Part shown: positions 1,990-56,955 of the stretch, one piece after another | Position numbering within the stretch: the first letter of the stretch is position 1 | Layout of the letters: each line of letters begins with the position of its first letter | Assembly (NCBI GenBank): GCA_030220185.1 | Contig: JASPKZ010004202.1 | Location: 872,001-936,000 of the forward strand | Length of the DNA stretch: 64,000 nt | Source: Diploptera punctata | Taxonomy: Eukaryota; Arthropoda; Insecta; Blattodea; Blaberidae | Reading direction: 5' to 3' | Position numbers and translations under genes: made by a program | The notes under the pieces: model-generated | Databases searched by the model: none | What the model was told of the DNA's origin: nothing | What the model saw: only the letters and a program-made list of their open reading frames with translations

Positions 1990-2052
1990 AATCTTTATGC
2001 CTGTAGGCCTATCAGAACATCCGTTCCATCTTCAGCAGATCCCTCTTCGCTA
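1990..2052 (-). ncRNA. Hammerhead-like motif, family J (GATA variant)
   Basis: Minus-strand order: CTGAAGA (2029-2035), one T, a 5-bp stem II GGAAC/GTTCT, GATA (2010-2013), palindrome GGCC (2006-2009), then TA (2004-2005). Short stem I pairing CTG/CAG flanks it. The plan equals that of the intact copies elsewhere, but GAAA is changed to GATA, which should weaken or abolish cleavage. Confidence 0.45.
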
Positions 2053-2099
2053 CAACATCCAGTATGATGGTTGATGCTGCTGGTCCTAATGTGGTGCTG

Positions 2100-2235
2100 T
2101 CATGACATGTTTTTATATAGGTTAAGAGCCTGGTCTAAATAAATGTTAAAAACAATTGGTGACAAACTGCATCCCTGCTTACGGTCTTTATTCACTGTGA
2201 ATTCCTCTATTAAATTATTCGGTATTTTTACTTTA
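2100..2235 (-). mobile_element. LINE-Q RT palm fragment
   Basis: Minus strand encodes KDRKQGCSLSPIVFNIYLD, the conserved RQGCSLSP box that lies upstream of the FADD box in non-LTR reverse transcriptases. It is probably the displaced upstream piece of the LINE-Q copy at 1075-1870. The upstream part of this open frame (2236-2345) has no recognisable homology. Confidence 0.75.
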
Positions 2236-2264
2236 GCTTTTGTATTACTAGAGTTCTTATTAAA

Positions 2265-2655
2265 ACCTATCTGACTACTGGAGACGTGCTGCAAGAATAT
2301 CAGAAATTCATATATAAAAGAAAAAAATGCAGGTACAATATTCAATATTAGATTTTATAATGAAGAAACAATTAAATTGATACGGACACATTAGAAGGAT
2401 GGAAGAAGGAAGACTACCTAAGATAATCATGGATTGGGTACCACAGGGAAGGAAAAAGAAGGGTAGACCAAATATTACGTGGATTCAGGGAATCAATGAA
2501 ACTAAGAGGGAATGGGAAATAGAAGAAGATATATGGATGAACAGACAAGAATGGAAAAATGTGTTGAAACAAATGTGTAGTTAACTGTGAACATGGGTAC
2601 CGGAAAAATGTACATTCATTGTAAAAGCCGGAATAATAATAAAAAATTAAAACCT
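2265..2655 (+). mobile_element. LINE-Q 3' end, plus strand
   Basis: Encodes HIRRMEEGRLPKIIMDW then KKKGRPNITWIQGINET, a typical post-RT LINE tail, ending in an AATAATAAT-rich 3' end. A longer copy of the same part lies at 29849-30240. It stands tail to tail against the minus-strand LINE-Q fragments just upstream. Confidence 0.8.
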
Positions 2656-3008
2656 ATCTACTAAGACCTTCTACAACCCCCAGAAGTCTGTAAAAGTTAT
2701 TCAGAAACACTCTGTATAAGGACAAGATGAGTAAAAAAGTTATCAGTTACATATGTGTGCCTCCCACCTGTAGGAGAGCGCGCTGGAGGGGAACAGGCTA
2801 TAATATCTTAGAGCGTTCTACAATATTGTTTAGTCAGAAATCGTCTTTCGTGTTTGAAACTTGTGGTGTGCTTCTCCAGTGCGCATGCTTGTTACAGTCT
2901 CACGAGTTGTGTAAAAAATAAATACTCATTTCTGCAAACTTATCAACTTTTAGAGAGTGAGTACCACACTTTTTATTATTAACCAGCGAAGTGGCAAAAC
3001 ACTAATTT
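2656..3008. other. No recognised feature
   Basis: Contains only a short open frame (2727-2921) with no recognisable protein signature. Nothing else supported. Confidence 0.5.
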
Positions 3009-3223
3009 ATCCTGTCTTCTTCTTCTTCTTCTTCTTCTTCTTATTTATATTTGTAGGATTTTCATCCTGTTTATTTCCCAAATCACTCCTCGGAGGAAGA
3101 AGTATTGGATGTGCATTCACTGTCTATCCATCTCTTCGCTGGTCTTCCTCTTGTTCTTCTCCCGTCCATTGGTCTACCTTCTTTAGCTTTTTTGCAAGTC
3201 AGTTGTCTTGTATTCTTTCTATA
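3009..3223 (-). mobile_element. LINE-R 3' half, with (AAG)n tail
   Basis: The (TTC)n run at 3018-3042 is the 3' microsatellite tail of LINE-R read on the minus strand. The rest matches 10880-11078 in reverse complement. The copy is split from its upstream half (4023-4370) by the LINE-P insertion at 3232-4014. Confidence 0.8.
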
Positions 3224-3231
3224 TTACCTTT

Positions 3232-4014
3232 GGGCCAACACGCACACACTATTGAGTGACACTAAGAAATTAGGACTGGAAGTAAATATCAATAAAACTA
3301 AATATATGGTCACACGTAGAAATTCAGTATATAATGGAAATGGACAGCTAATGACAAATGAGGGAAATTTTGAGGAAGTGGCTGAATTCAAATACCTAGG
3401 AACAATAATCACAAACAGGAATGAGATGCACAAAGAAATTAAACATAGGCTCAATTCTGGAAATGCGTGCTATTGTGCATTACAGAAACTCTTGATGTCC
3501 CAACTCCTTTCAAAAAACGTTAAGCTGAAAATATATAAAACTATTATTCTACCAGTTATATTATATGGGTGCGAAACATGGACTCTTACTTTAAGGGAGG
3601 AAAGGAGATTACGAGTATTTGAGAATAAAGTTCTTAGGAAAATTTTTGGACCAAAGAGAGATGAACAGACAGGTGAATGGAGAAGACTACATAACAATGA
3701 ACTACATGGTCTTTATAGGAAACCAGATATAATAAGAACAGTTAAGTCTCGTAGACTGCGATGGGCAGGACATGTTGCACATATGGGGAATGAAAGACTT
3801 GTATGGAAACTTCTTGTAGGAAAGCCAGAAGGAAAACGCCCAGTTGGTAGACCAAGAATGAGGTGGGAGAACAACATTAACTATGATTTGAGGGAAGTAG
3901 ATTATACAGGGAATGATTGGAAAGCATTAGCTCAGGATAGAGATGTATGGAGAGCTTATGTCCGCGCGGCCATGAACCTACGGGTTCGATAGTACCAGTG
4001 AGTAAGTAAGTAAG
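3232..4014 (+). mobile_element. LINE-P insertion with 8-bp target duplication
   Basis: 5'-truncated LINE-P. The open frame runs to 3992 and encodes KLGLEVNINKTKYMVT, FKYLGTIITN, YGCETWTL, SRRLRWAGHVAHMG and GRPRMRWENNINYD, i.e. the end of the RT and the C-terminal tail. The 3' end is an AGTA repeat. TTACCTTT is present on both sides (3224-3231 and 4015-4022), which marks a clean insertion into LINE-R. The ATG at 3105 of the long frame lies in antisense LINE-R sequence and is not a genuine start. Confidence 0.88.
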
Positions 4015-4022
4015 TTACCTTT

Positions 4023-5190: not shown

Positions 5191-5249
5191 ACGCATTAAA
5201 TATATAAATTATTGTTGTATTGTTGCTTAGATCAGTTGGAACACAATTC

Positions 5250-5309
5250 ATAATTTGTTAACATGTCTGAAGAAGGTACAGTGTACCGAAACAGCTGTCA
5301 CTGAATTAT
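5250..5309 (+). ncRNA. Hammerhead ribozyme motif, family A (copy A1)
   Basis: Core CTGAAGA at 5267-5273, one extra A, stem II GGTAC/GTACC with an AGT loop (5275-5287), GAAA at 5288-5291, self-complementary CAGCTG at 5292-5297 as minimal stem III, and TC at 5298-5299 with predicted cleavage after 5299. Stem I is GT/AC, an internal loop, then ATAATTT (5250-5256) with GAATTAT (5303-5309). All invariant core bases are present. Seen directly; activity is inferred. Flanking sequence resembles the PLE 3' end at 45650-45910. Confidence 0.82.
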
Positions 5310-5615: not shown

Positions 5616-5639
5616 TCCTGAGGCCTGTTGTGGGATCAC

Positions 5640-11470: not shown

Positions 11471-11944
11471 GGGCACGCCAGTGCTACATGGTCAGTAACG
11501 CGAAGATTTCGCAACGTGGCAGAATGTGATGCAGTCCAGTTATCGCTGAAACCAATTGATTCTGATGTGGAATGTAGTTGAACCTTATCTTGGGTTATCT
11601 CCTCCTTCCCACACGCTCATATATTATTTCATTGCTAGAATGTGTATGTTTAATAATAAAGGAGTTGCATCCGGTCTTCATTCTATTTTACAATTCTTGC
11701 TTCTCGCCTTGCGGCAGTCTTCAAGGTACCGTAAAACTTTGACATATTTTTCAAGGTACTAGTAATATACAATGAAAAATTAGAAAAGAAAAAGAAATAT
11801 TACAAGACTTAAATAACATGCATGATAAAATCACTTTCGTCGAAGAAATAGAAGTTAATAATAGTGGAATGCAGGCTTTCACGGCCGGTAATCATGGTAT
11901 TAAAATATTCCGGGCTATGTGGCCGTGGTCTATAACTGGCGTTT

Positions 11945-11992
11945 CTTCCAGACGTTTCTCCCTCAACTGCGGAGGGCATCTTCAGTGGCGAG
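11945..11992 (-). ncRNA. Hammerhead-like motif D1
   Basis: Minus-strand arm of the family-D foldback. Core CTGAAGA and GAAAC are intact and stem III is reduced to CG, so ACGT is palindromic if A15.1-U16.1 is counted. Confidence 0.6.
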
Positions 11993-12034
11993 CGCTTCCA
12001 GCTGTTGTTTCCCTGTCGTAGACTCGACTGCGAA

Positions 12035-12085
12035 TGCGCTCGCCACTGAAGATGCCCTCCGCAGTTGAGGGAGAAACGTCTGGAA
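12035..12085 (+). ncRNA. Hammerhead-like motif D2
   Basis: Plus-strand arm. CTGAAGA at 12046-12052; stem I begins CCA/TGG on either side. Same core as D1. Confidence 0.6.
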
Positions 12086-12210
12086 GAAACGCCAGTTATA
12101 GACCACGGCCACATAGCCCGGAATCTTTTAATACCAGAAGTTAATAATAGTATAAACTAGTTAGATTTGTCTATAACCAAAAATCTACACAACAATTTTG
12201 TCTTTAAGCT

Positions 12211-48400: not shown

Positions 48401-51400
48401 AATTCTTACGTTTATTGCAAAATTAGTATTTTCATAAAAATCTATTTTTCAGGTAGTTATATTATTCAAAATAAAATACTTTCCACCTGACCTCATATCT
48501 CGTCTTCTAATTCGACTGGTTTACATCGTCAGTAGTTATATGCATGTTCTGTCATCCAGGAGCACTGCTCCTTACTCCATCTGTTGGTGGGCCAATGAAA
48601 CTCCCAATATAATGAAGATCATGAGAATTTCAAAATTCATTCGTCTTTCTTAGTTTTTTGAATATGAATTTTTTTTCCTCCAAACAGTCGAGCGCCTTAG
48701 ATTTTCTATTTGTTATATCCTATATAATAACTTATTGTACTTGTGCAAAATTTTCGATTTTTTATTAAGCCATTTTCGAAAAAATTTGTTGCTTTTTCCG
48801 GATTTTCAAAGTGCATCAAAATATCATCTGTTAGTGGACCAATGAAATTCTCAATCAAATGAAGATCCTGAGAATTTCAAAATTCATTAATTTTTTATTC
48901 ATGTATTTTATGTTTTTCGGGCTAAATGACCATGGTCTGGTTTTATTAAAACTCGACGTTTCGTCTACTACTGCGGTAGACATCCACAGGAGATTCTGCG
49001 TGCTCTTTGACTTCTTAACTCTTCAAATGTCAGCTGCAGACTGATTGTGTGTTGGAAATCGTGTCCTTATTTATAGTTGAGTATTGTGTGGTGATGTTTT
49101 CTACACGGTTCGTTACTTTGGAGCTATTTTTCTGATTGGTTGTTACTGGCGTAAGTCATGGATTTTATTCTCGTGTTATATAATGCCGGAATCCAAATTT
49201 TATTAATCTTCATAGTTTCTTCTTTTTTGTTAAAGGAATTTTTGTGTTTGTAAATTTAAAAAAAAAAATAGCTCCAAAGTAACGGACCGTGTAGAAAACA
49301 TCACCACACAATACTCAACTATAAATAAGGACATGATTTCCAACAAACAACCAGTCTGCAGCCGACATTTGAAGAGTTAAGAAGTCAAAGAACACGCAGA
49401 ATCTCCTGTGGATGTCTACCGCAGTAGTAGACAAAACGTCGAGTTTTAATAAAACCAGACCACGGCCATTTAGCCCGAAAAACATAAAATACACAAATCA
49501 AAATACCTGCCGTGAAAGTCTACAATTTTTTCATTAATTTTTCTTTCTTAGTTTTTTGAATATGAATTTTTTTTCCCAAACAGTGAACTCGTATTTGTTT
49601 TATTAAACTAGCCTTTCTTTCAATTTGATATTTTTCTGACCAAGCATGAGCAGTTACTGCTGATTTTTCCAATTCCCTATGTTTGAGTGTTCCTTCACTC
49701 TGGTTTGCAAATTTATTCCTTTTCCCTATGTAAATTCTATCACAATCTTCACATTTAATCTGGTAAATTCCTTATTTTTCTTCCTCAATTGTCATTTTTA
49801 TTGGTTTTAATTCTCCTATTGATGCTGCATCAATTTATCGGTGCCAATCTCATGTCGAACTTCTTAAATTTTTTTTTAATTCCTGGTGCTTCAATGGATT
49901 TCTAAAATTTTGTTTTCTTTTTCTTTTTAGAAGTGTACTTTGGTTAAGTCCACCGCTGTGGTCCCGAGGTAACGTGCTGCCTTGTCACGCAGCGGGCCCA
50001 GGTTCGATCCCCGGTCGGGGCAGTTTTTCTGGCTGAGGTTTTTATAGGGGTTTTTCCTCACCTGTAAGACAAATGTCAGGAAAACTTTAAGGCCCAAACG
50101 ATCCCTGAAATCATATGGCCATCGTCATCATCCTTCACCGGTGTGGAAAGCAACGGGAAGCTACCACACCTACAATTCCCTAGTAAAGCTGCAAGCATAG
50201 CATGAAAATGCTATGATTGCAGTGAAGGAACTGCCTTTGGGCAGAATTACTGTGGATGGACTTTGGTTAAGACCTGGCAAAATACAATTATGTCATGTTT
50301 AGGATTTTAGCATCAATTTGTGCCCTTCTTGAATTTACCTTTTGGATTTTCAATATCTCAAATATGGAGAAAGATTTTTTTTTAAATTAATGAAGTGTAT
50401 TTTGGAATAATTTCAGATTCTACGTGGCCTGGTGTGGGATCAAACATGTGGAAAGAAGGAAACTGCTGGCTGTATCATACAGACAATTTTCAGATTATAC
50501 GTAAATCTCACAACAGCAGGTACGTATTAAGGTAGAATTTTTTATCACTCACCTCATATTGTTCCTCTTATTTGACTATAAACTAGTTTCGGAACATAGT
50601 TTCTGTCCATCCTCAGTACTGTCATGACCGTTGTTCTGTCGCCATGAAGAGGTATGTATGTTTTACCTTTGCGTTATCATAGCTCAGTGGGATAGGGGTA
50701 AAATTCAAACAAACTGACAAAAATTATCTCAAATGAACGATATACAAAGTGAGTCTAAATTCCCATTACAGAGTTTGAGTAGGTGTTCAACCCCAGTCTA
50801 GGTGTATATTTTTCATTCAAATATAATTTGTCTATCATTAAGATGTTTAAAAACGAATAATATTAACATAGGAATCGTGTCTGGAAAGTACCAATTTTCC
50901 ACATACACACAAAAAAATCACCACATATGCTTTTTCAGCGCCACTCACTAGGGTAGCCAACACGTCATTCCCAATTCAGCTGATGTTCCACGTCCACTGT
51001 GAGTTTGTTTACGTGCTGTTCAGTTGAGTTTGTGATCCACCCAGAGACATTTGTACCTGCACAGTACAGTCGTAATCCTTCACGACAGTACAAGGTGTAC
51101 ATACTTCATTGGTACTGTGTTGCTGTTATCCATGCAGACGTGATGTTATTGTACAGTGAATCTCGGTGCAATGGCAGTCTGATTGCTTGGTCTGCACATT
51201 CTCCCGCTAGACTTCTACCTGTGGGGTCACATACTTACTTACTTACTCACTGGCACTATCGAACCCGTAGGTTCATGGCCGTGCAGACATAAGCTCTTGA
51301 TATATCCCTATCCTGAGCTAATGCTTTCTAGTCATTCCCTGTATAATCTACTTCCCTCAAATTATAGTTAATGTTATTCTCCCACCTCATTCTTGGTCTA

Positions 51401-53571
51401 CCAACTGGGCGTTTTCCCTCTGGCTTCCCTACAAGAAGCTTCCATGCAAGTCTTTTATTCCACATACGTGCAACATGTCCTGTCCATCGCAGTCTACGAG
51501 ACTTAACTGTTCTTATTATATCTGGCTTCCTATAAAGACCATGTAGTTCATTGTTTTGTAGTCTTCTCCATTCACCTGTCTGTTCATCTTTCATCTCTCT
51601 TTGGTCCAAAAATTTTCCTAAGTACTTTATTCTCAAATACTTGTAATCTCCTTTCCTCCCTTAAAGTAAGAGTCCATGTTTAGCATCCATATAACTGGAA
51701 GTGGGATCACATGAAAACCTTAATTTACGAGACTCCTGTAGAATCCGAGGAAGACCTACTAGTACAAGTTATGATTGTGGCAGATGTTGAAGGACCAGGG
51801 ATTGGTGATCGTGTGTATGAGAACTTGGTACTGAGGTACCGCATCTGTATTGAACTCGGTGGTTATCACATTGAGCCCTTCTTGTAAGTGGTTCACAGGC
51901 GGCAGGAGTCGGAGAGAGCAACATGTGTTCTGGTATTTTGTGTGTAATGGAAAAACAGTATGTTTCCAGACATCGGACCTATATTAAATTTAATTGTCTT
52001 GGTCCCCTCTATAAGTCCTCAAACTTTATAAGAGGAATTTAGACTCACCCTGTTTATGCAAAACAATAAATCAGTCAGGGTAGGGAATTGCATGTAACAA
52101 AGAAAGTTTCAAGTGATCCAATGATTTTAAGTGGGTGAAAATCGCGTATACATAGATACAGGTCAAGCTAATATAAAGCGTGTAGTAACTGATGATAATC
52201 TTCTTCTTCTTCTCCGTCAGGCTCTACAACTTCCAGAGGAATGTCTTGGCCTTCTCAACTAGTTTACACCACTTCTTCCTATCTTGCGCAGTGGATTTCA
52301 AATAAAAAATCCCCATCTCTCTTAAATCTTCAATTACGTCATCTTCCCATCGATCTTTGGGTCTTGCTCTTGGTCTGTTCCCTGTGGCTTCCAATTTAAA
52401 ATATCATTCGGCAATCTTTTTTTGGCATTCTTAGTGTATGTCCAAACCATTGTAATCTTTTGGATTTGATGAAACTAACTATATTTTTTTATTATTCTTG
52501 AGGTATAATTTGTTATTCCTTCTTAACCTCCAAGTTCCATTTTCCTTTACTGGACCTAGCACTCTTCTAAGTATTTTCCTCTCAAACGTTAATAGTCTTA
52601 ATTTATCTGCTTCTTTTAGTACCCAGGTTTCAGCTCCATAACATATGATTGGTCTATTATTGCTGTATATAATTTGAATTTAACATTTTTTTATATTAAT
52701 TTGCTTTTGAATCTATCGAAATTAGCAAAATATGCTTTATTCCCTTGCGATATTCTTGTTTTGATCTCTTCTTCAACAGTATTATTATCGTATTCCGTAG
52801 ACTTTCACGGCCGGAGTTGCTATGATGATCTTGAAGAAGATTTTCGGGCTGTAGGCCGTGGTCGTGAGGCTTGTAGTTCCCCGACGTTTCGCCAGAGACT
52901 GTGTCTGACCAATCAGAAGACAGATATAACGTACAGTCAACTAGACCATCAAACAGCAATCTCATTGGAGCAATGGAAGTCCCTAACGCTGACCAATCAG
53001 AAGACAGATACAACTTACGAACACATCGCGGTGAACATATAAATAAGACAGACAGCGGACAGAATTGCCAGTCTCAAGACAACCCTTGAGGATGCTAGAC
53101 GCAGTCTCTGGCGAAACGTCGGGGGAACTACAAGCCTCACGACCACGGCCTACAGCCCGAAAATCTTCTTCAAGATCATCATAGTATTATTATCGTTTAG
53201 TATTGTGCCAGGTACTTAAAGGAGTTAATTTGATCAATACAGTACTATTTATAGTTAGTTCATTCTAATTTGTTTATTTCTCATACATCTTAAATATTTT
53301 GTTTATTTAGATTGATTACAAGCCCATATTTTATACTTTCATTTTTCAATTTGTCAAAGGTTTCCAGTAGGGAATTTTTTGTTCTTGCTTTATAATTACA
53401 TCATCAACTGATAATATTATTAATTTATATTCAGGATTAACAACAATAGGGATGCTGTTGGACGCTGTGGTGTGAGACTCGGAAGAAACGAAGAAACTGG
53501 ACTTGTACGGAGGAGACGATAAAAAGCCAAAAATTGAGAGCGAGAAGCAAACTTTTCAACAAATGAAGTGA
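18016..53571 (+). CDS. Oatp: Oatp gene: organic anion transporting polypeptide (SLCO family), 12 recognised exons
   Basis: Membrane transporter of the OATP/SLCO family, a sodium-independent carrier of amphipathic organic anions; in insects one relative imports ecdysone. Spliced exons give about 680 residues with up to 12 membrane segments. The family signature DPRWLGAWWLGWIILG spans exons 4 and 5. The large cysteine-rich loop with a Kazal-like domain (CNSGCHCDNLKYMPVC, then YYSACHAGC) is in exons 7-9. All exon joins except the exon 2 acceptor have GT-AG borders and matching phases. The frame needs seven 1-bp corrections (exon 1 at 18064-18066; exon 2 at 24620 and 24716; exon 3 at 26874; exon 11 at 50425, 50458 and 50487). 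An in-frame TGA lies at 53473. Exons 4-10 are clean. Either a gene with unpolished base errors or a recent pseudogene. Paralogue not assigned. Confidence 0.9.
18770..19065 (-). mobile_element. SINE-X copy in Oatp intron 1
   Basis: tRNA-like head on the minus strand near 19000-19060 (B-box-like GGTTCGATTTC) and a body shared with 61700-61970. Preceded by an (ATT)n run at 18538-18565 and a LINE-P end scrap near 18675-18705. Confidence 0.65.
19442..19571. repeat. CT-rich microsatellite
   Basis: TCTC and CCTCTC tract of about 130 bp. It produces a spurious Ser/Leu open frame. Confidence 0.95.
19735..19795 (-). ncRNA. Hammerhead motif A2
   Basis: Core CTGAAGA on the minus strand at 19770-19776, GAAA and CAGCTG intact. 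Stem II is shortened (GGTA/TACC) and the first stem I pair is altered (TC followed by C). Cleavage is probably weaker than A1. Confidence 0.65.
19988..20047 (+). ncRNA. Hammerhead ribozyme motif A3, sense in Oatp intron 1
   Basis: Core CTGAAGA at 20005-20011, with stem II GGTAC/GTACC, GAAA, CAGCTG and TC all matching A1. It is in sense orientation in the Oatp primary transcript. Confidence 0.8.
20110..20885 (+). mobile_element. LINE-Y RT tail
   Basis: Peptides TEYLAINSNERENLVLEDG, SVAMYGSEVWTINKYYKNRL and RIEEKELKWLGHVLRMEDER in two or three frames, ending in a GATAGATAGATA tail. Degenerate. Confidence 0.8.
20890..20985. repeat. Short perfect hairpin
   Basis: GATTTTCATCAAGTAAACACC and its complement face each other across about 25 bp. 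The left arm recurs at 45928-45958 just before Oatp exon 9. Confidence 0.75.
21000..21090 (-). mobile_element. Decayed family-A PLE end
   Basis: GAAACAGCTGTAAAG remains, but CTGAAGA has become CTAAAAG, so the ribozyme core is lost. Confidence 0.5.
21092..21265 (-). mobile_element. LINE-P RT fragment
   Basis: Reverse complement of 9600-9790 (YVDFKK, then LLEFGIPKKLVRLI). Confidence 0.7.
21266..21815 (+). mobile_element. MITE-1 copy
   Basis: About 550 bp between imperfect terminal inverted repeats built on AACTGCACTT and AAGTGCAGTT, with no coding capacity. Other copies are at 60362-60905 (-), 61985-62760 (+) and 62765-62960 (-, partial). Confidence 0.75.
22080..23007 (+). repeat. Helitron-like element with ~271-bp tandem units
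   Basis: GATTGGGTCCCT-type phrases recur at about 22160, 22432 and 22702, with CCTAAACRACTGRACCGATTTTGA in each unit. The block ends near GTGCCGGGTTCACTAG followed by T at 23008, a possible Helitron 3' end. A diverged reverse copy is at 55490-55790. Class call is inference; I did not find a 5' TC end or a rep/helicase gene. Confidence 0.5.
23340..23530. mobile_element. Hammerhead foldback, family E, 13-bp target duplication
   Basis: Two arms with GGCTTTCACGGCCGGAG-type outer ends meet at GTTTCGCCAGAGAC and GTCTCTGGCGAAAC. GTGTGGCCAATGT (23327-23339) and GTGTGGGCAATGT (23531-23543) flank it. The hammerhead 5' core is truncated at the joint; GAAACGTC remains on the right arm. Confidence 0.75.
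23714..24352. mobile_element. DNA transposon remnant with ~70-bp inverted ends
   Basis: Terminal inverted repeats containing GACCGGCCTCACGG and TTTCACCCG. The interior minus strand (23754-23969) encodes ERSPQKSLPKLAQQVGISVS, a helix-turn-helix typical of insect DDE transposase N-termini. Non-autonomous. Confidence 0.65.
24378..24545 (-). repeat. Repeat K, second copy
   Basis: Reverse complement of 8319-8478. It ends about 30 bp before the Oatp exon 2 coding homology. Confidence 0.6.
24574..24805 (+). CDS. Oatp: Oatp exon 2 (TM2-TM3), twice frameshifted
   Basis: Homology starts at GIVISGNEISQIS and continues LSYYGGKGNRPLWIAWG, GLSCFILMMP and HIVYGPGQNALALTKS, then an N-glycosylation-rich NMTNNT loop. 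One base is missing at TT 24620-24621 and one at CCC 24716-24718. Donor GT at 24806, phase 1. I find no AG acceptor at the expected 5' border, only CCGG. Repeat K ends 30 bp upstream, so the acceptor may have been damaged by insertion or by assembly error. Confidence 0.82.
24815..24980 (-). mobile_element. SINE-X body after exon 2
   Basis: Body of SINE-X starting 10 bp after the exon 2 donor (CTGGCACTGGTGGAACTGTA, GATGATATGATAGG). Confidence 0.6.
25190..25245 (-). ncRNA. Hammerhead-like motif B1
   Basis: CTGAAGA on the minus strand at 25227-25233, GAAA, CCGTCGG, TA. Stem II carries a G-G mismatch. Confidence 0.55.
25340..25400 (+). ncRNA. Hammerhead-like motif B2, sense in Oatp intron 2
   Basis: CTGAAGA 25350-25356, extra A, stem II GGACA/TGTCT with loop TGATAT, GAAA 25374-25377, CCGTCGG 25378-25384, then TA. 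Core intact; first stem I pair mismatched. Confidence 0.65.
26205..26740 (+). repeat. Repeat M, copy 1, with a conserved 40-odd codon frame
   Basis: Matches 56965-57510 over about 540 bp. A short frame at 26393-26523 encodes EISAVEKRYQGKWNPDMLAE, then YCWTIKRDAPQ and a stop after SRKS. Both copies keep the frame and stop. Likely a transposon-derived gene piece; function unknown. Confidence 0.6.
26800..27002 (+). CDS. Oatp: Oatp exon 3 (TM4)
   Basis: Acceptor TTTTAAGCAG to 26799, donor at 27003. Encodes ERMDPKCEDNELENTP, then, after a missing C at 26874-26875, MMPLILIFLSQFVLGIGSTM and FALGQPYLDDNVKK. The FLSQFVLGIGSTMYF block is strongly OATP-like. Phase 1 at both ends. Confidence 0.9.
27030..27190 (-). 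mobile_element. LINE-P RT scrap
   Basis: Reverse complement of the TTDQIFSIRQ to YVDFKK region. Confidence 0.65.
27205..27660 (-). mobile_element. LINE-T 3' end
   Basis: Reverse complement of 7590-7995, starting with the terminal CTGCTCTTGGGCAGAACAC block. Confidence 0.75.
27803..27943 (+). CDS. Oatp: Oatp exon 4 (TM5, signature start)
   Basis: Acceptor TATTTCAG, donor GTAAGT. Uninterrupted: GWVLAFRTLGPAIGLGLGAA, then YIDPSLTPII and DPRWLGAWWLG. Carries most of the OATP superfamily signature. Confidence 0.96.
27975..28075 (-). repeat. tRNA-like sequence, intron 4
   Basis: Same family as 59062-59136: A-box TAGTTCAGTTGG, a 6-bp anticodon stem with loop CCGGAAA, B-box with one base lost. The anticodon would be GGA (Ser), but the long variable arm of a Ser tRNA is missing, so it is a tRNA-derived repeat. 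Confidence 0.55.
28465..29420 (+). repeat. Repeat Z, copy 1
   Basis: 28465-28640 has four diverged short units built on ATTTTGAAGAAGTA. 28600-29420 is the reverse complement of 42250-43060 (intron 8). No coding potential. Confidence 0.7.
29590..29745 (+). mobile_element. LINE 3' end with (GAT)n tail
   Basis: GGCGAAGAGACCCAGAGAGA and the terminal AACAGGCCAATGGCCTAAT block, then GATGACGATGATG. Related to LINE-V ends. Confidence 0.6.
29849..30240 (+). mobile_element. LINE-Q 3' end
   Basis: MDYWRRASRISRKDKIRNSY, then HIRRMEEGRLPKIIMDWEPQ and GRPNITWIQGINETKREW. The most complete copy of this tail, with an AATAATAAAAAAAA end. Confidence 0.82.
30325..30478. mobile_element. Family-E foldback, minimal
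   Basis: GATCTTGAAGAAGATTTCC and its inverse, joined at GGCTTGAAGTTCCCC against CAACTTCAAGCC. The hammerhead core is deleted at the joint. Confidence 0.65.
30480..31335 (+). mobile_element. LINE-S copy, split by another LINE end
   Basis: KTWQFLHYFMGV, YGSETWVMTKKLQS and NFLRRTKDCTRLDRIKNEDI up to 30899, then resumes at 31152 with KEYRDKWFRRVERMNVTRL and RNVGRPVKRWTEQL. The block in between is a separate insertion. Confidence 0.82.
30900..31140 (+). mobile_element. LINE-V-type end inserted in LINE-S, 11-bp target duplication
   Basis: GATAAAATCAA occurs at 30889-30899 and 31141-31151. The insert is a 5'-truncated LINE end with a (GAT)n tail (ATGGATGATGATGATGAT). Confidence 0.8.
31325..31565. 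repeat. Two-unit tandem repeat
   Basis: CCTAAYGTATTTAATNNTCTTCAGTT then ATTAATCTATT in each of two copies, about 160 bp apart. Confidence 0.6.
31768..32425 (+). mobile_element. Repeat W in intron 4
   Basis: Starts ATCATAAGTAATGCCACG and ends GAGTTAAATAGCC. It lies less than 100 bp from the acceptor of exon 5. Confidence 0.7.
32521..32757 (+). CDS. Oatp: Oatp exon 5 (TM6 and central cytosolic loop)
   Basis: Acceptor GTGTAAAG, donor GTAATA. WIILGTSMLAFSFMIAMFPK completes the signature and TM6, followed by a hydrophilic loop rich in Lys, Glu, Ser and Pro. Uninterrupted. Confidence 0.94.
32830..33178 (-). mobile_element. SINE-U
   Basis: tRNA-like head on the minus strand near 33110-33175 (A-box TAGTGGTCAGCA, B-box GGTTTGATTC), then a body ending in AAGCATGCAAG. 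The segment at 8597-8648 is a piece of this family. Confidence 0.65.
33530..33905 (-). mobile_element. LINE-V tail
   Basis: 107-codon frame: MARPVLTYDSEAWTLKRQHE, CEMRFMRRTAGYTRWDRKRN and HHLERMSSNRIPKAVYNYIP, with a GAAGAAGAAG tail. Confidence 0.8.
33947..34169. mobile_element. Hammerhead-like foldback, family C, 10-bp target duplication
   Basis: ATGGTTTCAT at 33937-33946 and 34170-34179. The arms pair from TCTTACCTCATACATCTATG to the centre GGCGACACTTTGTCGTC. Each arm has GATACTGCAGTGCTG, where GAAA is replaced by GATA and the cleavage-site TH by TG. Confidence 0.75.
34401..34565 (+). CDS. Oatp: Oatp exon 6 (TM7)
   Basis: Acceptor TATGTACAG, donor GTAATT. DFPTALKRLLKNKLLMTNIT precedes TM7, then KYLETQFQQSASGANLIAG, a classic OATP motif. 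Uninterrupted. Confidence 0.96.
34625..34783 (+). mobile_element. Penelope-like element: GIY-YIG domain C-terminal part
   Basis: RNIKNGEIEKSAVAAHVWSE, KHNINSDTKLLKQLENKKEL and WEKIYIQ: the SAVAxHxW..H helix and the WE.IYIQ segment of the PLE endonuclease. Continues after a SINE at 35142. Confidence 0.8.
34784..35128 (+). mobile_element. SINE-L with 13-bp target duplication
   Basis: tRNA-Leu-like head (GCGCCGTAGCCGAGCGG; B-box GGTTCAAGTC), then a body with GCGGCTCCAGGTTGAGGAAC and CCAGCAGCCGGCTGG. AATCTATATTCAG occurs at 34771-34783 and 35129-35141, inside the PLE frame. Other copies: 38975-39220 (-) and 56044-56345 (+). Confidence 0.85.
35142..35360 (+). mobile_element. PLE C-terminus and family-G hammerhead remnant
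   Basis: KNKNRVMNFEIPTERDLVWR follows on from the split domain. The hammerhead relic reads CTGACAA (instead of CTGANGA), stem II AAAACA/TGTTTT, GAAA, CATG and TC near 35289-35323. Confidence 0.65.
35440..35825 (-). mobile_element. PLE 3' fragment with family-I hammerhead remnant
   Basis: Minus strand: GIY-YIG tail (SEKHQIKRKASLIKQTEKP) and, near 35468-35512, CTGAAGA, T, stem II GTAACC/GGTTAC, then AAAA instead of GAAA. Related copy at 48480-48895. Confidence 0.6.
35828..36820 (+). mobile_element. Repeat W interrupted by (TA)n and a mirrored tRNA-like piece
   Basis: W runs 35828-36365 and 36550-36820. Between them are a TA run (36367-36400) and AATGCTTGAGTCGGGATTTG facing its own complement across about 20 bp. 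Confidence 0.65.
36840..36985 (+). mobile_element. Decayed family-B PLE end
   Basis: CTGAAGG and GAGA replace CTGAAGA and GAAA. The CCAGTATC remnant and the GTATGAGGTGA terminus remain. Confidence 0.5.
37787..37982 (+). CDS. Oatp: Oatp exon 7 (TM8-TM9)
   Basis: Acceptor GTTTACAG, donor GTAAGT. VASILSSVAGFLISGYLISK and RTSYVLGWNVIVGCVYITAE, then the first Cys of the large loop (GCKHHDLQG). Ends in phase 2, matching exon 8. Confidence 0.96.
38035..38570. mobile_element. PLE inverted pair: family-H (-) and family-B (+) ends
   Basis: Left, minus strand: stem II GAGAGA/TCTCTC, GAAA, ACTAGT and TC near 38065-38090, with a degraded core (TTGAAAA). Right, plus strand: GIY-YIG tail EHFRNIKNCEIEKSAIAEHS and LEHHKIGREAKL, then TTGAAGA (38505-38511), GAAACC and GGTA. 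Confidence 0.65.
38690..38970 (-). mobile_element. PLE 3' fragment, family G
   Basis: Minus strand encodes ELTIWEKVYIQKNNNRVLNF and EIPTERDLVWRFSGQLQEEA, followed by CTGAGGA, T, perfect stem II GATTAG/CTAATC, AAAA in place of GAAA, CATG and TT. A one-base change from a canonical hammerhead. Confidence 0.7.
38975..39220 (-). mobile_element. SINE-L copy
   Basis: Reverse complement of 34784-35060, including AGCGGCTCCAGGTTGAG and the tRNA-Leu-like head near 39170-39215. Confidence 0.75.
39318..39376 (-). mobile_element. LINE-T terminal scrap
   Basis: GTGTTCTCCCGAGAGCAGG block, same as 27220-27270. It ends 22 bp before Oatp exon 8. Confidence 0.6.
39399..39537 (+). CDS. Oatp: Oatp exon 8 (Kazal-like domain)
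   Basis: Acceptor ATTTGCAG, donor GTAAGT. LINECNSGCHCDNLKYMPVC and TYYSACHAGCRSVYNNSK: the cysteine pattern of the conserved extracellular loop. Phase 0 exit. Confidence 0.97.
39560..39985 (-). mobile_element. LINE fragment (V-like)
   Basis: Minus strand contains KIETAEMKFLHSVAGVTILD, RKRNEDIRKDLNI and RVQTNRT in broken frames. Confidence 0.65.
40490..40835. mobile_element. PLE terminal fragments, inverted
   Basis: TGGGTTGGATATTTTGACTC, then TCACCTCATATTTC. Paired MNFEIPG-coding ends face each other around 40690-40760. Too decayed to find a hammerhead core. Confidence 0.45.
40850..41840 (+). mobile_element. Repeat W, split by a solo LTR
   Basis: W sequence 40850-41238 resumes at 41772 (AAACAAAATTAATTGAAAC, then CATTGACTCCCATTTTG). 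Confidence 0.7.
41239..41767 (+). mobile_element. Solo LTR, 529 bp, 4-bp target duplication
   Basis: Begins TG (TGTAGCAAGAATT) and ends CA (ACCGGCACA). TTGT is repeated at 41235-41238 and 41768-41771. It contains TATAAAG at 41436-41442 and AATAAA at 41694-41699, in the right order for U3-R-U5. No second LTR or internal genes nearby. 4-bp duplications fit Gypsy-type elements. Confidence 0.82.
42115..42165 (+). mobile_element. Family-D foldback end fragment
   Basis: TAGAATGCAGGCTTTCATGG and the following TAGTCATAGTATTA match the left terminus of 11866-12135. Confidence 0.5.
42250..43060 (-). repeat. Repeat Z, copy 2
   Basis: Reverse complement of 28600-29420 over about 800 bp. The flanks are hammerhead foldbacks. 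Confidence 0.7.
43070..43230. mobile_element. Family-C foldback
   Basis: Perfect-looking arms around GCGACCATGATGGTGACGATGG with GATACTGTGGTGCTG on the right arm. Confidence 0.7.
43240..43500. mobile_element. Family-D foldback
   Basis: Minus-strand core CTGAAGA (43278-43284) and plus-strand core CTGAAGA (43409-43415), with GAAA intact on the right arm. The right arm has CCTC/GAGG as stem II but GAAACACT in place of GAAACGTC. Confidence 0.65.
43505..44265. mobile_element. PLE inverted pair with GIY-YIG tails
   Basis: Minus-strand frames 43529-44003 encode FRNIKNGEIEKSAIAAHSLL, WEKNIYSKK and MNFEIPDELSLITKFFKNTT. The plus-strand arm (43965-44230) repeats MNFEIPDE with KTAEDGDDG. The minus arm has a run of near-identical 13-codon units (DGSLENNSFKRTP). 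Confidence 0.75.
44520..44830 (+). mobile_element. SINE-N (tRNA-headed)
   Basis: A-box-like TGGACAAGTGGTTATGC and B-box GGTTCAAACCC (44573-44583), followed by a unique body (AAGTCCTCCGGGAGGGACAT). Only this copy is seen here. Confidence 0.65.
45362..45421 (-). ncRNA. Hammerhead motif A4
   Basis: All core elements present, but the last base of stem II next to GAAA is G instead of C, opening the closing pair. Confidence 0.65.
45815..45874 (+). ncRNA. Hammerhead ribozyme motif A5, sense in Oatp intron 8
   Basis: Identical to A1 in every core and stem position: CTGAAGA 45832-45838, GAAA at 45853-45856, CAGCTG 45857-45862, TC 45863-45864. Confidence 0.82.
45989..46200 (+). CDS. Oatp: Oatp exon 9 (end of Kazal loop, TM10)
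   Basis: Acceptor TATTTCAG, donor GTAAAT. GFSDCSCLS closes the cysteine-rich loop. VKAGPCLLDCGYNFILFLIV is TM10, and NSGKIGNILVNYR is a conserved family motif. Exits in phase 2. Confidence 0.96.
46229..46380. mobile_element. Family-G foldback, 29 bp after Oatp exon 9
   Basis: GTCTGGACATCTTACCTCAA faces its complement, with TTGAAACATGTCCAAGAAC in both arms. The hammerhead 5' core is deleted at the joint. Confidence 0.65.
46540..47885. mobile_element. Two repeat W copies, inverted
   Basis: Plus copy 46540-47200, minus copy 47200-47885, meeting at the GAGTTAAATAG end. Both outer ends are TAAGTAATGCC. Confidence 0.7.
48021..48124 (+). CDS. Oatp: Oatp exon 10 (TM11)
   Basis: Acceptor TATTTTCAG, donor GTGAGC. 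CVAPEDKSFAQGLALLCLSL, then AFIPGPILFGAII. The donor lies 27 bp before the target duplication of a hammerhead foldback (48151). Confidence 0.96.
48164..48407. mobile_element. Family-C foldback, 13-bp target duplication
   Basis: ACGTTTATTGCAA at 48151-48163 and 48408-48420. The right arm has CTGATGA, T, a 6-bp stem II GGTGAT/ATTGCC, GATA, CTGCAG and TG, so only two core positions depart from a hammerhead. Confidence 0.8.
48480..48895 (-). mobile_element. PLE 3' fragment (left half)
   Basis: Minus-strand remnants of the GIY-YIG tail. Family-I ribozyme relic near 48500-48545. Continues at 49530 once the family-F foldback is removed. Confidence 0.6.
48896..49529. mobile_element. Hammerhead-like foldback, family F, 13-bp target duplication
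   Basis: TTCATTAATTTTT at 48883-48895 and 49530-49542. Arms of ~270 bp carry, outward, CTGTGGA, T, a perfect 6-bp stem II GTCTAC/GTAGAC, then GAAACGTC (left) or AAAACGTC (right). The core has CTGT instead of CTGA. Confidence 0.78.
49530..49930 (-). mobile_element. PLE GIY-YIG endonuclease fragment
   Basis: Minus strand 49735-49784 encodes GIYQIKCEDCDRIYIGK, the two diagnostic GIY and YIG strands of the PLE endonuclease with a CxxC pair between them. It is followed by SEKYQIERKASLIKQI and the terminal segment. This fixes the identity of the related fragments in this window. Confidence 0.85.
49948..50262 (+). mobile_element. SINE-1, near full length
   Basis: tRNA-like head with GGTTCGATCCCCGG, GGTGAGG-type body, and distal GGCAGAATTACTGTGGATGG end. 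It sits in Oatp intron 10. Confidence 0.82.
50417..50519 (+). CDS. Oatp: Oatp exon 11, three 1-bp indels
   Basis: Acceptor AATTTCAG, donor GTACGT. Read piecewise it gives DST, LVWDQTCGKK, GNCWLYHTDN and RLYVNLTTA, the expected run before TM12. An extra G near 50425, a missing G near 50458 and an extra T in 50487-50490 are needed to explain it. Confidence 0.85.
50555..50640 (-). ncRNA. Hammerhead ribozyme motif, family H
   Basis: Minus strand: CTGAGGA (50610-50616), T, stem II GGACA/TGTTCC with one bulge, GAAA (50587-50590), CTAG (50583-50586), TT (50581-50582). Core intact. It lies about 60 bp after the Oatp exon 11 donor, antisense to the gene. Confidence 0.72.
50746..52050 (+). pseudogene. 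DDE transposon with transposase remnant
   Basis: Terminal inverted repeats share GTGAGTCTAAATTCC and AGTTTGAG. The transposase C-terminus is visible on both sides of a LINE-P insertion: PLDFYLWGH near 51208-51232, then KTLIYETPVESEEDLLVQVM and RYRICIELGGYHIEPFL to a stop near 51884. This matches the widespread insect transposases with a PLDFFLWGH box. The N-terminal two-thirds are lost or scrambled. Confidence 0.75.
51233..51700 (-). mobile_element. LINE-P inserted in the DDE transposon, 12-bp target duplication
   Basis: Ends in the AGTA-type tail (ACTTACTTACTTACTC on the plus strand). GTGGGGTCACAT (51221-51232) and GTGGGATCACAT (51701-51712) flank it. The frame 51328-51636 encodes SRRLRWTGHVARMWNKRLAW. 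Confidence 0.85.
52200..53430 (-). mobile_element. LINE fragment interrupted by a hammerhead foldback
   Basis: Minus-strand LINE tail with a GAAGAAGAAG end at 52200-52214. It resumes after the insertion and runs to the acceptor of Oatp exon 12. Frames are broken. Confidence 0.6.
52792..53182. mobile_element. Hammerhead foldback, family E, 14-bp target duplication
   Basis: AGTATTATTATCGT at 52778-52791 and 53183-53196. Arms of ~115 bp flank a centre with two copies of CTGACCAATCAGAAGACAG. The right arm has TTGAGGA, T, 6-bp stem II GCTAGA/TCTGGC, GAAA, CG and TC near 53085-53122; only the first core base is changed. Confidence 0.8.
53435..53571 (+). CDS. Oatp: Oatp exon 12 (TM12 and C-terminus), in-frame TGA
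   Basis: Acceptor TATATTCAG. LTTIGMLLDAVV is TM12, then TGA at 53473-53475, after which the same frame stays open for 31 codons (KKLDLYGGDDKKPKIESEK) to TGA at 53569. The continued acidic and basic tail resembles OATP C-termini, so the first TGA may be a base error for Trp or a real truncation. Confidence 0.85.
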
Positions 53572-54375: not shown

Positions 54376-54589
54376 CCTCAAGATATACACCTGGCATGTG
54401 CTGCTACGCCTAAATAAATGAAATATTAAAGATTTATTCCTTAATCCAACATCCAATATTCATTAACCTTTTACTGCTAGTTCATTGCAGGTTCCGTCCA
54501 GCAATTCTTCTCTTTAGGTTTTTTAGCATTGTATATTTTCAGTAGAAGAGGAGCTGGCCCATTGCTACAACCCCCAACCTGGAGGACCA

Positions 54590-55025: not shown

Positions 55026-55044
55026 TAAAGGAGAAACACTTAAT

Positions 55045-55480
55045 TGTGGAATATTCCTAATTTCTTCTTCTTCCTTCCAAGTATTAGGCCAAGGCCTGTT
55101 ACGATCCTATAGAAAATTTTCCCTTATGGGAAATTCTCGTATAAGACTTGAAAGCATAATAATAGTCCCTTCAATTGGTTGCTGGCCAAAGGAAGGCAAG
55201 ACCAGTGATGGGGCTGCCATCTTATAGCCTCTGGTCAGGCTTTTCTGGAGAAGAAAAGAAAATAAAGGAGAGAAGAAATGGAAAAAAGGAAGGACTCCCT
55301 AGCCCTCGGATGCCCTAATAGCGTTGGGGTCGAAAAAACAAGAGTTAACCAAAGAGGTTAGATAGTAAAGTTAAAAGAGTGCAAAACACAAGTAAGTGGA
55401 AGAAATGTTTTGCACAGCTTGGGCACCTTGTGGTCGCCATCCACATATCCCCTAGATGAGGACCCCTGAGAAAATTTAAG
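55045..55480. other. LINE-V terminal scrap and unclassified segment
   Basis: 55045-55135 is a LINE-V type end (GAAGAAGAA tail on minus). 55150-55480 is GC-richer, non-coding and not seen elsewhere in the window. Confidence 0.45.
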
Positions 55481-55489
55481 AATTAATCA

Positions 55490-55795
55490 TATATATATAT
55501 ATGCTATACACTGCGACAAACCAAATATGGCAGTTTTACATCAATTTTCAATTTCAAATTTCAGGTAATCCCACACTTCTAACAGCCAGATTCCGATGAT
55601 TTTTGGTCAATACCTACCTCGGTTTATTTTAATATGATATACAGAGTTTCGTTGTGAAACATCGAAAAATGTGACCGCTAGAGCGATTTTTTAATTTTCA
55701 CTTCAGGTGAGGAACCCAATCAGACCCTCACAAAAATTTTCAATCAAAATCAATTTGGTCGTTTAGGAGGAGTTCAGTGAAAAATACACATACTC
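55490..55795 (-). repeat. Helitron-like repeat, diverged
   Basis: Reverse complement of the 22080-22560 unit (GAACTCCTCCTAAACGACC and CTCTAGCGGTCAC blocks). Confidence 0.5.
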
Positions 55796-55929
55796 AAGAA
55801 TTATATATATATAAAGATAATATGCTTTTAATCATAAACAAAGTGGGAGGTAATGCTATGATGTATTTACAATTCATAAATGAGTTGGAGAAAATGCTTT
55901 AACACCTCACTTCATAAAGTATCGTCAAG

Positions 55930-56012
55930 ACACGCAACACAGTTGGAGCTTGACTGAAGATGGAAGTAAAATTATACTTTTGAAACCGGTATTGTAAAGA
56001 AACACAACTTTA
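55930..56012 (+). ncRNA. Hammerhead ribozyme motif, family B (copy B5)
   Basis: CTGAAGA 55954-55960, extra T, 7-bp stem II pairing 55962-55968 with 55975-55981 (two G-T pairs) around loop AAATTA, GAAA 55982-55985, CCGG 55986-55989, TA 55990-55991 with predicted cleavage after 55991. An outer stem I of AGTTG/CAACT is available. One of the cleanest copies. Confidence 0.8.
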
Positions 56013-56043
56013 CAAGGTGAGATTTTAAAGCATTTTCTGCAAC

Positions 56044-56345
56044 TCATTCATTGATAACTGTCCTGCGCCATAGCCGAATTGGTTAAGGCAGGAAGCCTTG
56101 GCGCAGAGCTACGGGATTTGCACTGGTTCGAGTCTCCATGGGATAAGAAATTTTCTCATCGTAAGGCATTTGTGTAGCTACAATAAGTAGCGGCTCCAGG
56201 TTGAGAAAACCAGCTATAGCAGCTGGGGACTCGGCATGCTGACCACATGTCATCCCTACACTGGCTGATTATCATCTACCTCTTTGATTGACATGTATGG
56301 ATGGGAGGCCAGCAGCCGGCTGGTAGGCCTTCTAGGCCTGTTGTG
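56044..56345 (+). mobile_element. SINE-L copy
   Basis: CTGCGCCATAGCCGAATTGG head with B-box GGTTCGAGTC, then the shared body to CCAGCAGCCGGCTGG. Confidence 0.78.
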
Positions 56346-56880
56346 CCAGGAGTTTTTTTATTCATTAATAACCTGTACTGTTTCACCAGTGAAGCTCGGT
56401 CACTTACCTGAAGTTTTACAAGGCAACAACCAGCGGAGATGTCAATTTTAGGAAAACCCTCTGTCTGGAGGATTGGAGTATGTAATAGGAAGTTCCAAGC
56501 AGATGGACGTCCCTATATGAGTAAGAGCAGAGTGAAGTGAGGTGGGGCATGGTGCTGATGGCAGACAGTCAGGGTTATCCAATCTATCATTTAAAGAGTT
56601 GTATTACATCCCTATTGTTTAAATGAGAGATTTGGTGATGGATTTTAGTGCCTTGCAGTTAAAAACAGCATTTTTTTTTTTGGACACGGCCTTGGTGCAT
56701 CATAAAGCTTCTGTGGCAGAAATATCAAGGTAGGTATCCGCGTGTAATGGTTGAGAGTTCCCTTGTAAGAAAAAAAGACTTAGCAGCTAAAATATTTAAT
56801 CAAAATTACAGTAGGAAGTAACATATGAGGCAATTTTCAATTAATAAATGAGTTCAATAAAATGTTTTTGCATCTCACCT
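56346..56880. other. No recognised feature
   Basis: No convincing exon, repeat or RNA. Confidence 0.4.
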
Positions 56881-56887
56881 CAAAGTT

Positions 56888-56955
56888 CTGTTTTTTCACA
56901 ATACCGGTTTCAAAGGCCCTTGCCTTCATCTTCAGACACTTCAACTGTTGAAAAT
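56888..56955 (-). ncRNA. Hammerhead ribozyme motif, family B (copy B4)
   Basis: Minus strand: CTGAAGA (56929-56935), T, 6-bp stem II GAAGGC/GCCTTT, GAAA (56908-56911), CCGG (56904-56907), TA (56902-56903). Core intact. Confidence 0.78.

What the first reader, a model, noticed from the sequence alone, without database searches (positions are those of the whole stretch)
2004..56935. At least ten hammerhead-like families share a self-complementary, minimal stem III
Seen directly: CTGANGA, one spare base, a 5-7 bp stem II, GAAA, then a tiny palindrome and TH. Counting the A and T that close it, the stem III is a perfect palindrome in every family although the sequence differs: ACAGCTGT, ACCGGT, ACATGT, ACTAGT, AGGCCT, ACGT, ACTGCAGT. 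Preservation of pairing without preservation of sequence argues for selection on dimeric ribozymes. Hammerheads in Penelope-like elements are known; so many divergent families within 64 kb, with near-random exchange of the palindrome, is what is worth attention.
Basis: partly seen in the sequence, partly recalled or inferred. Interest (0 to 1): 0.92.

Follow-up and report, generated by a model that had tools for sequence, protein, structure and literature searches.

The report
Retrotransposon ends carrying palindromic hammerhead RNAs
This stretch of a large animal genome is littered with the ends of Penelope-type jumping elements, each carrying a small RNA shaped like a self-cutting hammerhead ribozyme, often with a self-complementary tip; that is a known association, but one big lineage has lost a catalytic letter while keeping much of the shape, and the way the copies sit in the DNA records how these elements insert.

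Summary
Rfam finds no hammerhead in the window even at E<=10, but exact-core motifs number 14 against 0-3 in shuffles and a model trained outside the window gives 7 hits below E 1e-5. All three stems covary. Most families carry an extra U after CUGANGA. Stem III is palindromic in 84 of 100 listed places, not in every family.

Three patterns match 89,383 places in this 3.1 Gb genome. Family A is the end of a Penelope-like element. In head-to-head pairs one arm usually ends at a short site, the other at a 'tail' site (family A 26 of 28 resolved, family B 10 of 12; never tail-tail), inside target duplications of about 11-13 bp. Best reading: both target strands prime reverse transcription.

Hammerheads in Penelope elements and palindromic stem III are in print. 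Apparently new: the scale, and a lineage (13,758 pattern places) with U for catalytic A14 in 98 of 100 listed and G at site 17 in 82. Cleavage is untested.

The parts
5267..5299 (+). family A hammerhead core, stem III ACAGCTGT, site 17 = C
20005..20037 (+). family A hammerhead core
19745..19776 (-). family A hammerhead core (shortened stem II)
45832..45864 (+). family A hammerhead core, right arm of head-to-head pair (tail end)
45372..45404 (-). family A hammerhead core, left arm of the pair (short end; one stem II mismatch)
45299..45981 (.). head-to-head family A insertion with 13-nt target duplication TATAAATAAATGT at 45299-45311 and 45969-45981
46270..46303 (-). family B hammerhead core, ACATGT
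   Evidence: 44.9 bits, E 1.6e-9
46202..46436 (.). head-to-head family B insertion, 13-nt target duplication TAAATAAATTAAT; right arm truncated inside its hammerhead
35288..35321 (+). family B copy with G8 to A change
38713..38746 (-). family B lineage copy with exchanged stem II (GATTAG/CTAATC) and G12 to A
50581..50616 (-). family C hammerhead core, ACTAGT
55954..55991 (+). family D hammerhead core, ACCGGT
56902..56935 (-). family D hammerhead core, ACCGGT
36843..36880 (+). decayed family D copy
12046..12080 (+). family E hammerhead core, ACGT
   Evidence: weak, E about 1
11951..11985 (-). family E hammerhead core, ACGT
   Evidence: weak, E about 1
11850..12151 (.). head-to-head family E insertion, 16-nt target duplication AGAAGTTAATAATAGT; left arm carries the tail
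48955..48989 (-). family E copy (A6 to T), ACGT
   Evidence: weak, E 1.5
48883..49542 (.). head-to-head family E insertion, 13-nt target duplication TTCATTAATTTTT
53086..53120 (+). family E copy (C3 to T), ACGT
   Evidence: weak, E 3.1
25350..25386 (+). family F hammerhead-like core, odd-length ACCGTCGGT
25197..25233 (-). family F hammerhead-like core
25126..25504 (.). head-to-head family F insertion, 13-nt target duplication TTACGCTGATTTA; right arm carries the tail
38505..38540 (+). family F copy (C3 to T), ACCGTGGT
35474..35508 (-). family G copy (G12 to C), ACCAGT
44167..44202 (+). family H: hammerhead-like fold with GAUA in place of GAAA, ACTGCAGT, site 17 = G
48151..48420 (.). head-to-head family H insertion (one exact core at 48318), 13-nt target duplication ACGTTTATTGCAA
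33937..34179 (.). head-to-head family H ends (arms 100% complementary over 82 nt, cores truncated), 10-nt repeat ATGGTTTCAT at the flanks
2004..2035 (-). family I: GAUA in place of GAAA, AGGCCT, site 17 = A (T14 and A17 extend it to TAGGCCTA)

Best explanation
These are the ends (pseudo-LTR segments) of several Penelope-like retroelement families. Each end carries a type I-like hammerhead RNA with three helices, in most families one extra U between A9 and stem II (A in family A), and a minimal, usually palindromic stem III. Many copies are insertions of two 5'-truncated cDNAs head-to-head: both strands of a target cut with a stagger of about 11-13 bp prime reverse transcription, one at a short start site and the other at a 'tail' site about 40 nt further into the element RNA, on templates of the same source; the two cDNA ends are then joined, often at short inverted matches. 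Shown by sequence: motif, covariation, Penelope origin of family A, head-to-head pairs, one short plus one tail end, target duplications, same-source arms in family B. Inferred: priming on both strands, the joining step, the Penelope origin of families B-I, and any cleavage. Cleavage, if present, probably needs a dimer or the element protein and is not required for spread, since the family H pattern, nearly always with U14, occurs at 13,758 places.
For: Motif above shuffles; external model finds window copies. Stem II and inner stem III: 96.1% of cells paired against 67.6% shuffled and 29-41% when slid (20 of 100 listed places, picked for diversity). Stem I: 29 of 36 pair cells in 12 representatives, picked from 19 window copies, against 16.9 shuffled. 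Extra U: 60,638 places with T after CTGANGA against 1,882 with A, C or G (reversed controls 61 and 210). Penelope origin: family A hammerhead lies downstream of an RT frame (RVT_1, E 2.7e-9) and a frame with VYIGQT; 86 homologues, by my count 74 with PF26215 and 10 with PF01541. Ends, family A: 35 head-to-head pairs, 28 resolved: 26 short plus tail, 2 short-short, 0 tail-tail; duplication score >=10 in 18 of 26 against 0.7% of 997 swapped partners. Ends, family B lineage: 12 of the 14 loci: 10 short plus tail, 2 with no tail recognised, 0 tail-tail; duplications in 9 of 10 against 1 of 90 swapped. Orientation: of 100 listed places, neighbours within 1 kb are 18 head-to-head, 3 same-strand, 1 converging; family A mixed-strand loci are 22 '-+', 1 '--+', 1 '+-'. 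Same source: N7 agrees in 48 of 50 listed family B pairs (of 1,962) against 24.5 expected. An Anolis Penelope protein extends both target strands in vitro and starts at two internal sites (PMC11167929).
Against: Rfam hammerhead models miss all copies. Monomer folding is no better than shuffles in 5 of 6 tested. In family A the two arms of a pair differ almost as much as arms of different pairs (6.4% against 7.0%, 26 pairs), so same-source origin is not shown there. Pfam did not score the family A GIY-YIG fragment. Many copies are not two-armed: 46 of 72 family A loci hold a lone exact motif; some have a truncated partner, but for example L031, L046, L050, L051, L052, L057 and L058 show one arm only. 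An earlier, cruder end rule called only 20 of 35 pairs short plus tail, 14 with an unclear end. No target duplication was found at the 43 kb pair, the 43.1 kb and 43.6-44.2 kb family H pairs, nor with score 8 or more in 4 of 26 family A pairs.
Confidence: 0.7

Rival explanations
1. Self-priming: one cDNA or antisense template folds back on itself and is copied, giving the head-to-head palindrome (proposed for rotifer Penelope elements in PMC3846280, passages).
For: Junctions are often palindromic (centres such as CTTTCCCAGCTGGGAAAG) and truncation points of the two arms are correlated (r 0.60; median difference 19.5 nt against 82 shuffled).
Against: Copying back one cDNA should give equal outer ends, but 26 of 28 (family A) and 10 of 12 (family B) pairs have one short and one tail end. 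In 10 of 26 family A pairs the short-end arm is the longer one (13 the tail arm, 3 equal, some pairs mapped poorly), and a short-start cDNA contains no tail to copy. In 39 of 50 listed tight family B pairs a rough script leaves a loop of at most 2 nt or an overlap, too small for an intrastrand hairpin.
Confidence: 0.15
2. Palindromic DNA transposons (MITEs) whose terminal inverted repeats contain a hammerhead look-alike.
For: Inverted repeats with short spacers; AT-rich ends.
Against: The two ends usually differ by a fixed tail, spacer length varies widely, family A runs upstream into a Penelope RT frame, and the duplications are mostly 11-13 bp of varied sequence.
Confidence: 0.03
3. Active dimeric ribozymes are the point: the palindrome is kept by selection for cleavage between two hammerheads (the first reader's reading; the class described by Lunse et al. 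2017, title seen only).
For: Palindromes and intact cores in families A-E; dimer activity reported for related hammerheads (PMC7761336, PMC7229834 passages).
Against: Family H: stem II paired, ACTGCAGT intact, but U14 in 98 and G17 in 82 of 100 listed places; hammerhead mutants insert normally in vitro (PMC11167929); same-strand neighbours, needed for a dimer in cis, are few (3 of 22 within 1 kb).
Confidence: 0.35
4. Chance resemblance or low-complexity bias.
For: No Rfam hit.
Against: Reversed-pattern controls 61 against 60,638 places and 0 against 13,758; covariation in three stems.
Confidence: 0.01

Closest known systems
Minimal type I hammerheads of Penelope-like elements (Cervera and de la Pena 2014; Lunse, Weinberg and Breaker 2017)
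   Same: Minimal hammerheads in Penelope pseudo-LTRs with little or no stem III, which may self-cleave through dimers (passages in PMC7761336; both original papers not held).
   Different: Whether the extra U after A9 and the U14 lineage are described there could not be checked.
Palindromic stem III hammerheads of Aedes and others (Perreault et al. 2011, PMC3088659)
   Same: Palindromic stem III/loop III read as allowing dimers (Figure S8 legend).
   Different: That survey rejected hits with core mutations or mispairs at 10.1-11.1; here most families carry an extra U exactly there, and family H lacks A14.
Inverted pseudo-LTRs and tail of Adineta Penelope elements (PMC3846280)
   Same: Head-to-head pseudo-LTRs, tail optionally on one of them, 8-10 bp target duplications (passages).
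   Different: Here the one-short-one-tail pattern is counted (36 of 40 pairs in two families, 0 tail-tail) and arms are tested for common source; the authors favoured self-priming on an antisense template.
Anolis Poseidon PAc in vitro system (PMC11167929)
   Same: Both target strands cut and extended; two internal start sites that bound the tail; hammerhead not needed for insertion.
   Different: They saw no difference in start site between strands; the genome copies here mostly show one of each per insertion.
Metazoan retrozymes (PMC7229834)
   Same: Type I hammerheads in very high copy number (126,247 motifs in axolotl; passages).
   Different: Retrozymes are tandem repeats of 150-450 bp; here same-strand neighbours are few, opposed neighbours are head-to-head, and family A is attached to a Penelope reading frame.

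Membership tests
Hammerhead ribozyme | Core C3 U4 G5 A6 N7 G8 A9 ... G12 A13 A14, A15.1-U16.1, H17 | tested here: met
   Families A-E in the window; for the 60,638 genome places the core was part of the pattern. Not met in H (U14 in 98 of 100, G17 in 82 of 100), I (one copy) or several decayed copies.
Hammerhead ribozyme | Three helices around the core | tested here: met
   Stem I (12 of 19 window copies), stem II, stem III.
Hammerhead ribozyme | Stem II starts directly after A9 (10.1-11.1 pair) | tested here: not met
   Extra base, T in 60,638 of 62,520 places of one class, A in family A; without it the first pair forms in 3 of 56 and only the fourth beats shuffles.
Hammerhead ribozyme | Match to Rfam hammerhead models | tested here: not met
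   No hit at gathering score or E<=10.
Hammerhead ribozyme | Self-cleavage after H17 | not testable with these tools
   Needs in vitro transcription.
Penelope-like element | Penelope-type reverse transcriptase reading frame | tested here: met
   Family A, locus L046: RVT_1 E 2.7e-9; 86 homologues, 74 with PF26215 and 10 with PF01541. Not tested for families B-I.
Penelope-like element | GIY-YIG endonuclease | tested here: inconclusive
   Frame with CGTCDNVYIGQTGR upstream of family A hammerhead, no Pfam hit for the 112-aa fragment; 10 of 86 RT homologues carry PF01541. The genome search for the family did not complete.
Penelope-like element | Pseudo-LTR with optional tail on one inverted copy and target duplication | tested here: met
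Metazoan retrozyme | Short tandem repeats with hammerheads | tested here: not met
   3 of 22 neighbours within 1 kb and 3 of 72 family A loci have same-strand neighbours; arrays seen in L025 and L056.

The most novel reading that the evidence does not exclude
In these elements the hammerhead is kept mainly as an RNA-RNA contact, not as a cutter: the palindromic stem III acts like a retroviral dimer-initiation site that pairs two element RNAs, so that a dimeric enzyme can start one cDNA on each target strand, one at the short and one at the tail site. Family H would be the natural separation-of-function case: a catalytic letter lost, stem II paired and an intact palindrome at 13,758 places. (Probability set at 0.10 rather than 0.12 on checking, because the palindrome was fixed in the family H pattern and so was not itself tested.)
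Probability: 0.1. Interest if true: 0.85.

Novelty: new variant of a known kind. Interest (0 to 1): 0.6.

Why it matters
How Penelope-like elements make head-to-head insertions, and why they carry hammerheads, are open questions (PMC11167929 says additional steps are yet to be validated; PMC7761336 calls the ribozymes' role a mystery). A genome with tens of thousands of footprints, recognisable end sites, scorable template markers, and a large lineage lacking the catalytic adenine makes both questions testable by counting and by simple in vitro assays.

Tried and rejected
Rejected: chance (shuffle and reversed-pattern controls); MITE with look-alike repeats; single-cDNA snap-back as the general mechanism; two unrelated template RNAs per insertion in family B (markers agree in 48 of 50). 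My first idea, taken from L025, that tandem 50-mers are joined exactly at the cleavage site was dropped: the join lies in a TCA shared by both sides (by eye), so ordinary microhomology explains it. A marker test in family A was inconclusive because the main variable site is a CpG. Rough scripts: one search's first end rule gave 20 short-tail, 8 tail-unclear, 4 short-unclear, 2 unclear, 1 short-short of 35, because matches drifted into AT-rich flanks; one search rescored them. One search mapped several long pairs poorly (overlaps of -764 to 766). The arm-length code allows one mismatch and overcounts some overlaps. One search, looser still, gave 39 short-tail, 5 short-short and 2 tail-tail pairs (the latter 1.2-1.5 kb apart) and many spurious fragments; I rely. 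In one search the script labels L078, L080, L081 and L082 short-short because it knows only the family B tail; L080 and L081 are other families, L078 and L082 are counted as family B with no tail recognised. The window duplications were sought in flanks I chose, without a null. No protein structure was predicted. One viral-contig scan found nothing. The host was not identified; the named homologues are, from recall, beetles.


Full report
OBSERVATION. The window holds 19 matches to CTGANGA-N(10-22)-GAAA against 2.6 expected. With stem II and a palindrome or hairpin after GAAA required, 14 exact-core starts remain (one, 31516-, does not look real) against 0-3 per shuffle, mean 0.7 (20 shuffles); with one mismatch 34 against a mean of 9.6. 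Rfam reports none, neither at gathering scores nor at E<=10. A model built from 20 of the 100 motif places listed on contigs C1-C2 finds 34 window matches at E<=5, 18 below 0.06 and 7 below 1e-5. Nine families can be told apart; five have both an intact core and an even palindrome.

STRUCTURE. On those 20 sequences, picked for diversity, 96.1% of cells form standard pairs (shuffled 67.6%; slid 29-41%), covariation score 0.799 against 0.242. In 56 unique motifs from the 100 listed places, stem II pairs 2-5 beat shuffles if one base after CTGANGA is left out; with it included the first pair forms in 3 of 56 and only the fourth beats shuffles (39 of 56 against 28.2). In this class that base is T in 60,638 places and A, C or G in 1,882 (reversed controls 61 and 210); family A has A. 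The inner two bases of stem III are self-complementary in 84 of 100 places and 41 of 56 unique motifs; 13 of 16 exceptions are TG or CA. Stem I next to the core pairs in 29 of 36 cells over 12 representatives of 19 window copies, against 16.9. Against this, lone RNAs fold no better than shuffles in 5 of 6 cases (family D z -2.0).

SCALE. The window lies in a 3.12 Gb assembly. Exact 33-mer of family A: 14,987 places (control 0); CTGANGAT...GAAACNNGTH: 60,638 (control 61); family H pattern: 13,758 (control 0). The patterns differ in fixed letters and should hardly overlap; the sum is 89,383, and mutated copies are missed.

WHAT THEY BELONG TO. Long family A copies run upstream into a reverse transcriptase frame with YRYVDD and a frame with VYIGQT. 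Pfam scores the first as RVT_1 (E 2.7e-9) and not the second. The RT frame has 86 homologues, by my count 74 with PF26215 and 10 with GIY-YIG (PF01541). The order frame end, hammerhead, short end, tail with ATGGATTTTCATCAAG fits a Penelope pseudo-LTR; the tail would then hold the start of the next reading frame (inference). For families B-I the frame was not traced; their link to Penelope rests on the same end structure.

ARRANGEMENT. The 100 listed family A places form 72 loci: 22 '-+' (head-to-head), 1 '--+', 1 '+-', 1 '--', 1 '---', 46 lone exact motifs. I fetched 60 of the 72. Allowing errors, these and the window hold 35 head-to-head pairs; 28 had both ends resolved: 26 short plus tail, 2 short-short, none tail-tail; duplication score >=10 in 18 of 26 against 0.7% of 997 swapped partners, lengths mostly 11-12. 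A first, cruder rule had called 20 of the 35 short plus tail and left 14 with an unclear end. Fourteen further loci were chosen because they listed as close '-+' pairs: 12 are family B lineage, of which 10 are short plus tail and 2 show no recognised tail; duplications in 9 of 10 against 1 of 90 swapped. In the window, exact repeats of 13-16 nt flank pairs of families A, B, E (two), F and H, and one of 10 nt flanks another H pair; the 43 kb pair and the 43.1 and 43.6-44.2 kb H pairs show none, the 19 kb pair a weak 10 nt (no null run). Some copies have one arm only.

HOW IT WORKS. One short and one tail start inside one target duplication is most simply explained by two separate starts of reverse transcription, one on each target strand. 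An Anolis Penelope protein does extend both strands and starts at two internal sites that bound the tail (PMC11167929, section 3 read whole). The older proposal was self-priming on an antisense template (PMC3846280, passages). Against copying back one cDNA: unequal ends, 10 of 26 pairs in which the short-end arm is the longer (13 tail arm, 3 equal), and, in 39 of 50 tight family B pairs by a rough script, no room for a hairpin loop. The family B pair pattern (gap 10-40) occurs 1,962 times; of 50 listed, the free core base N7 agrees between arms in 48 (28 A-A, 20 C-C, 2 C/T) against 24.5 by chance, so the arms share a source: one RNA, or two from one locus or period. In family A this is not shown. 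Arm lengths are correlated, which fits one template or trimming to inverted matches.

THE HAMMERHEAD'S ROLE. Over 54 unique stems, stem II positions are paired in 37-52 of 54, and pairs 3 and 4 covary clearly, pair 6 weakly, pairs 1, 2 and 5 not beyond shuffles. The palindrome was fixed in the pattern. Window and locus copies also keep complementary ACAG/CTGT flanks for stem I (by eye). By the standard consensus (PMC3088659 methods passage: A14 and H17 required) it should not cleave. Its 13,758 places indicate that a consensus core is not needed for spread; that hammerhead mutants still insert in vitro agrees. Within the family B lineage stem II is exchanged (1-2 of 6 letters kept per strand) while the 34 nt after the cleavage site stay 97-100% identical, except in one interrupted arm (53-56%). 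So pairing, not sequence, is kept; what for is unproven.

PRIOR ART. Palindromic stem III as a sign of possible dimers: PMC3088659 (passages, section 8 read whole). Minimal hammerheads in Penelope elements: PMC7761336, PMC6155905 (passages). Cervera 2014 and Lunse 2017 are not held; I saw their titles in reference lists. Other papers seen as passages: PMC7229834, PMC10085705, PMC12910113. Searches (listings capped, library partial) showed no paper that I recognised as describing the U14 lineage or the counted end pattern.

VERDICT. A known association at very large scale, with an extra U and a lineage without the catalytic adenine as apparent variants, and with insertion footprints that favour two-strand priming. 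On checking, confidence in the best explanation went from 0.72 to 0.70 because family B is 10 of 12, not 10 of 10.

Noticed in passing
window 58927-59152: Two tRNA-like sequences (58938-59012 minus, 59067-59140 plus) lie head-to-head with an 8-nt spacer (91% complementary arms of 109 nt): possibly a tRNA-derived element in the same arrangement.
   Followed up: no
downstream of hammerheads in families B, C, D, F and H, e.g. 46303-, 50616-, 55954, 25350, 44167: A 5' splice-site-like GAGGTRAG or close variant (AAGGTGAG at 55954) follows the predicted cleavage site by some 20-45 nt in several families (by eye).
   Followed up: no
L069-L079 and window 38746-: Stem II exchanged as a whole helix while 34 nt of flank stay nearly identical.
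   Followed up: partly
L025 around 1983-2254: Tandem array of about 50-nt units, each one hammerhead, next to a head-to-head partner; joins lie in a shared TCA.
   Followed up: partly
L027 1228-2098: A family A copy whose upstream part (about 217 nt) is inverted and abuts the forward part at the same reference position, like twin priming.
   Followed up: no
window 3057-3992, 9707-10411, 16816-17472, 61112-61846, 57774-58631: Frames that look like LINE reverse transcriptases (RVT_1 above its cut-off only for 9707-10411, below it for 16816-17472; 3057-3992 not scanned; 61112-61846 no hit) and a frame that looks mariner-like by eye but has no Pfam hit.
   Followed up: partly
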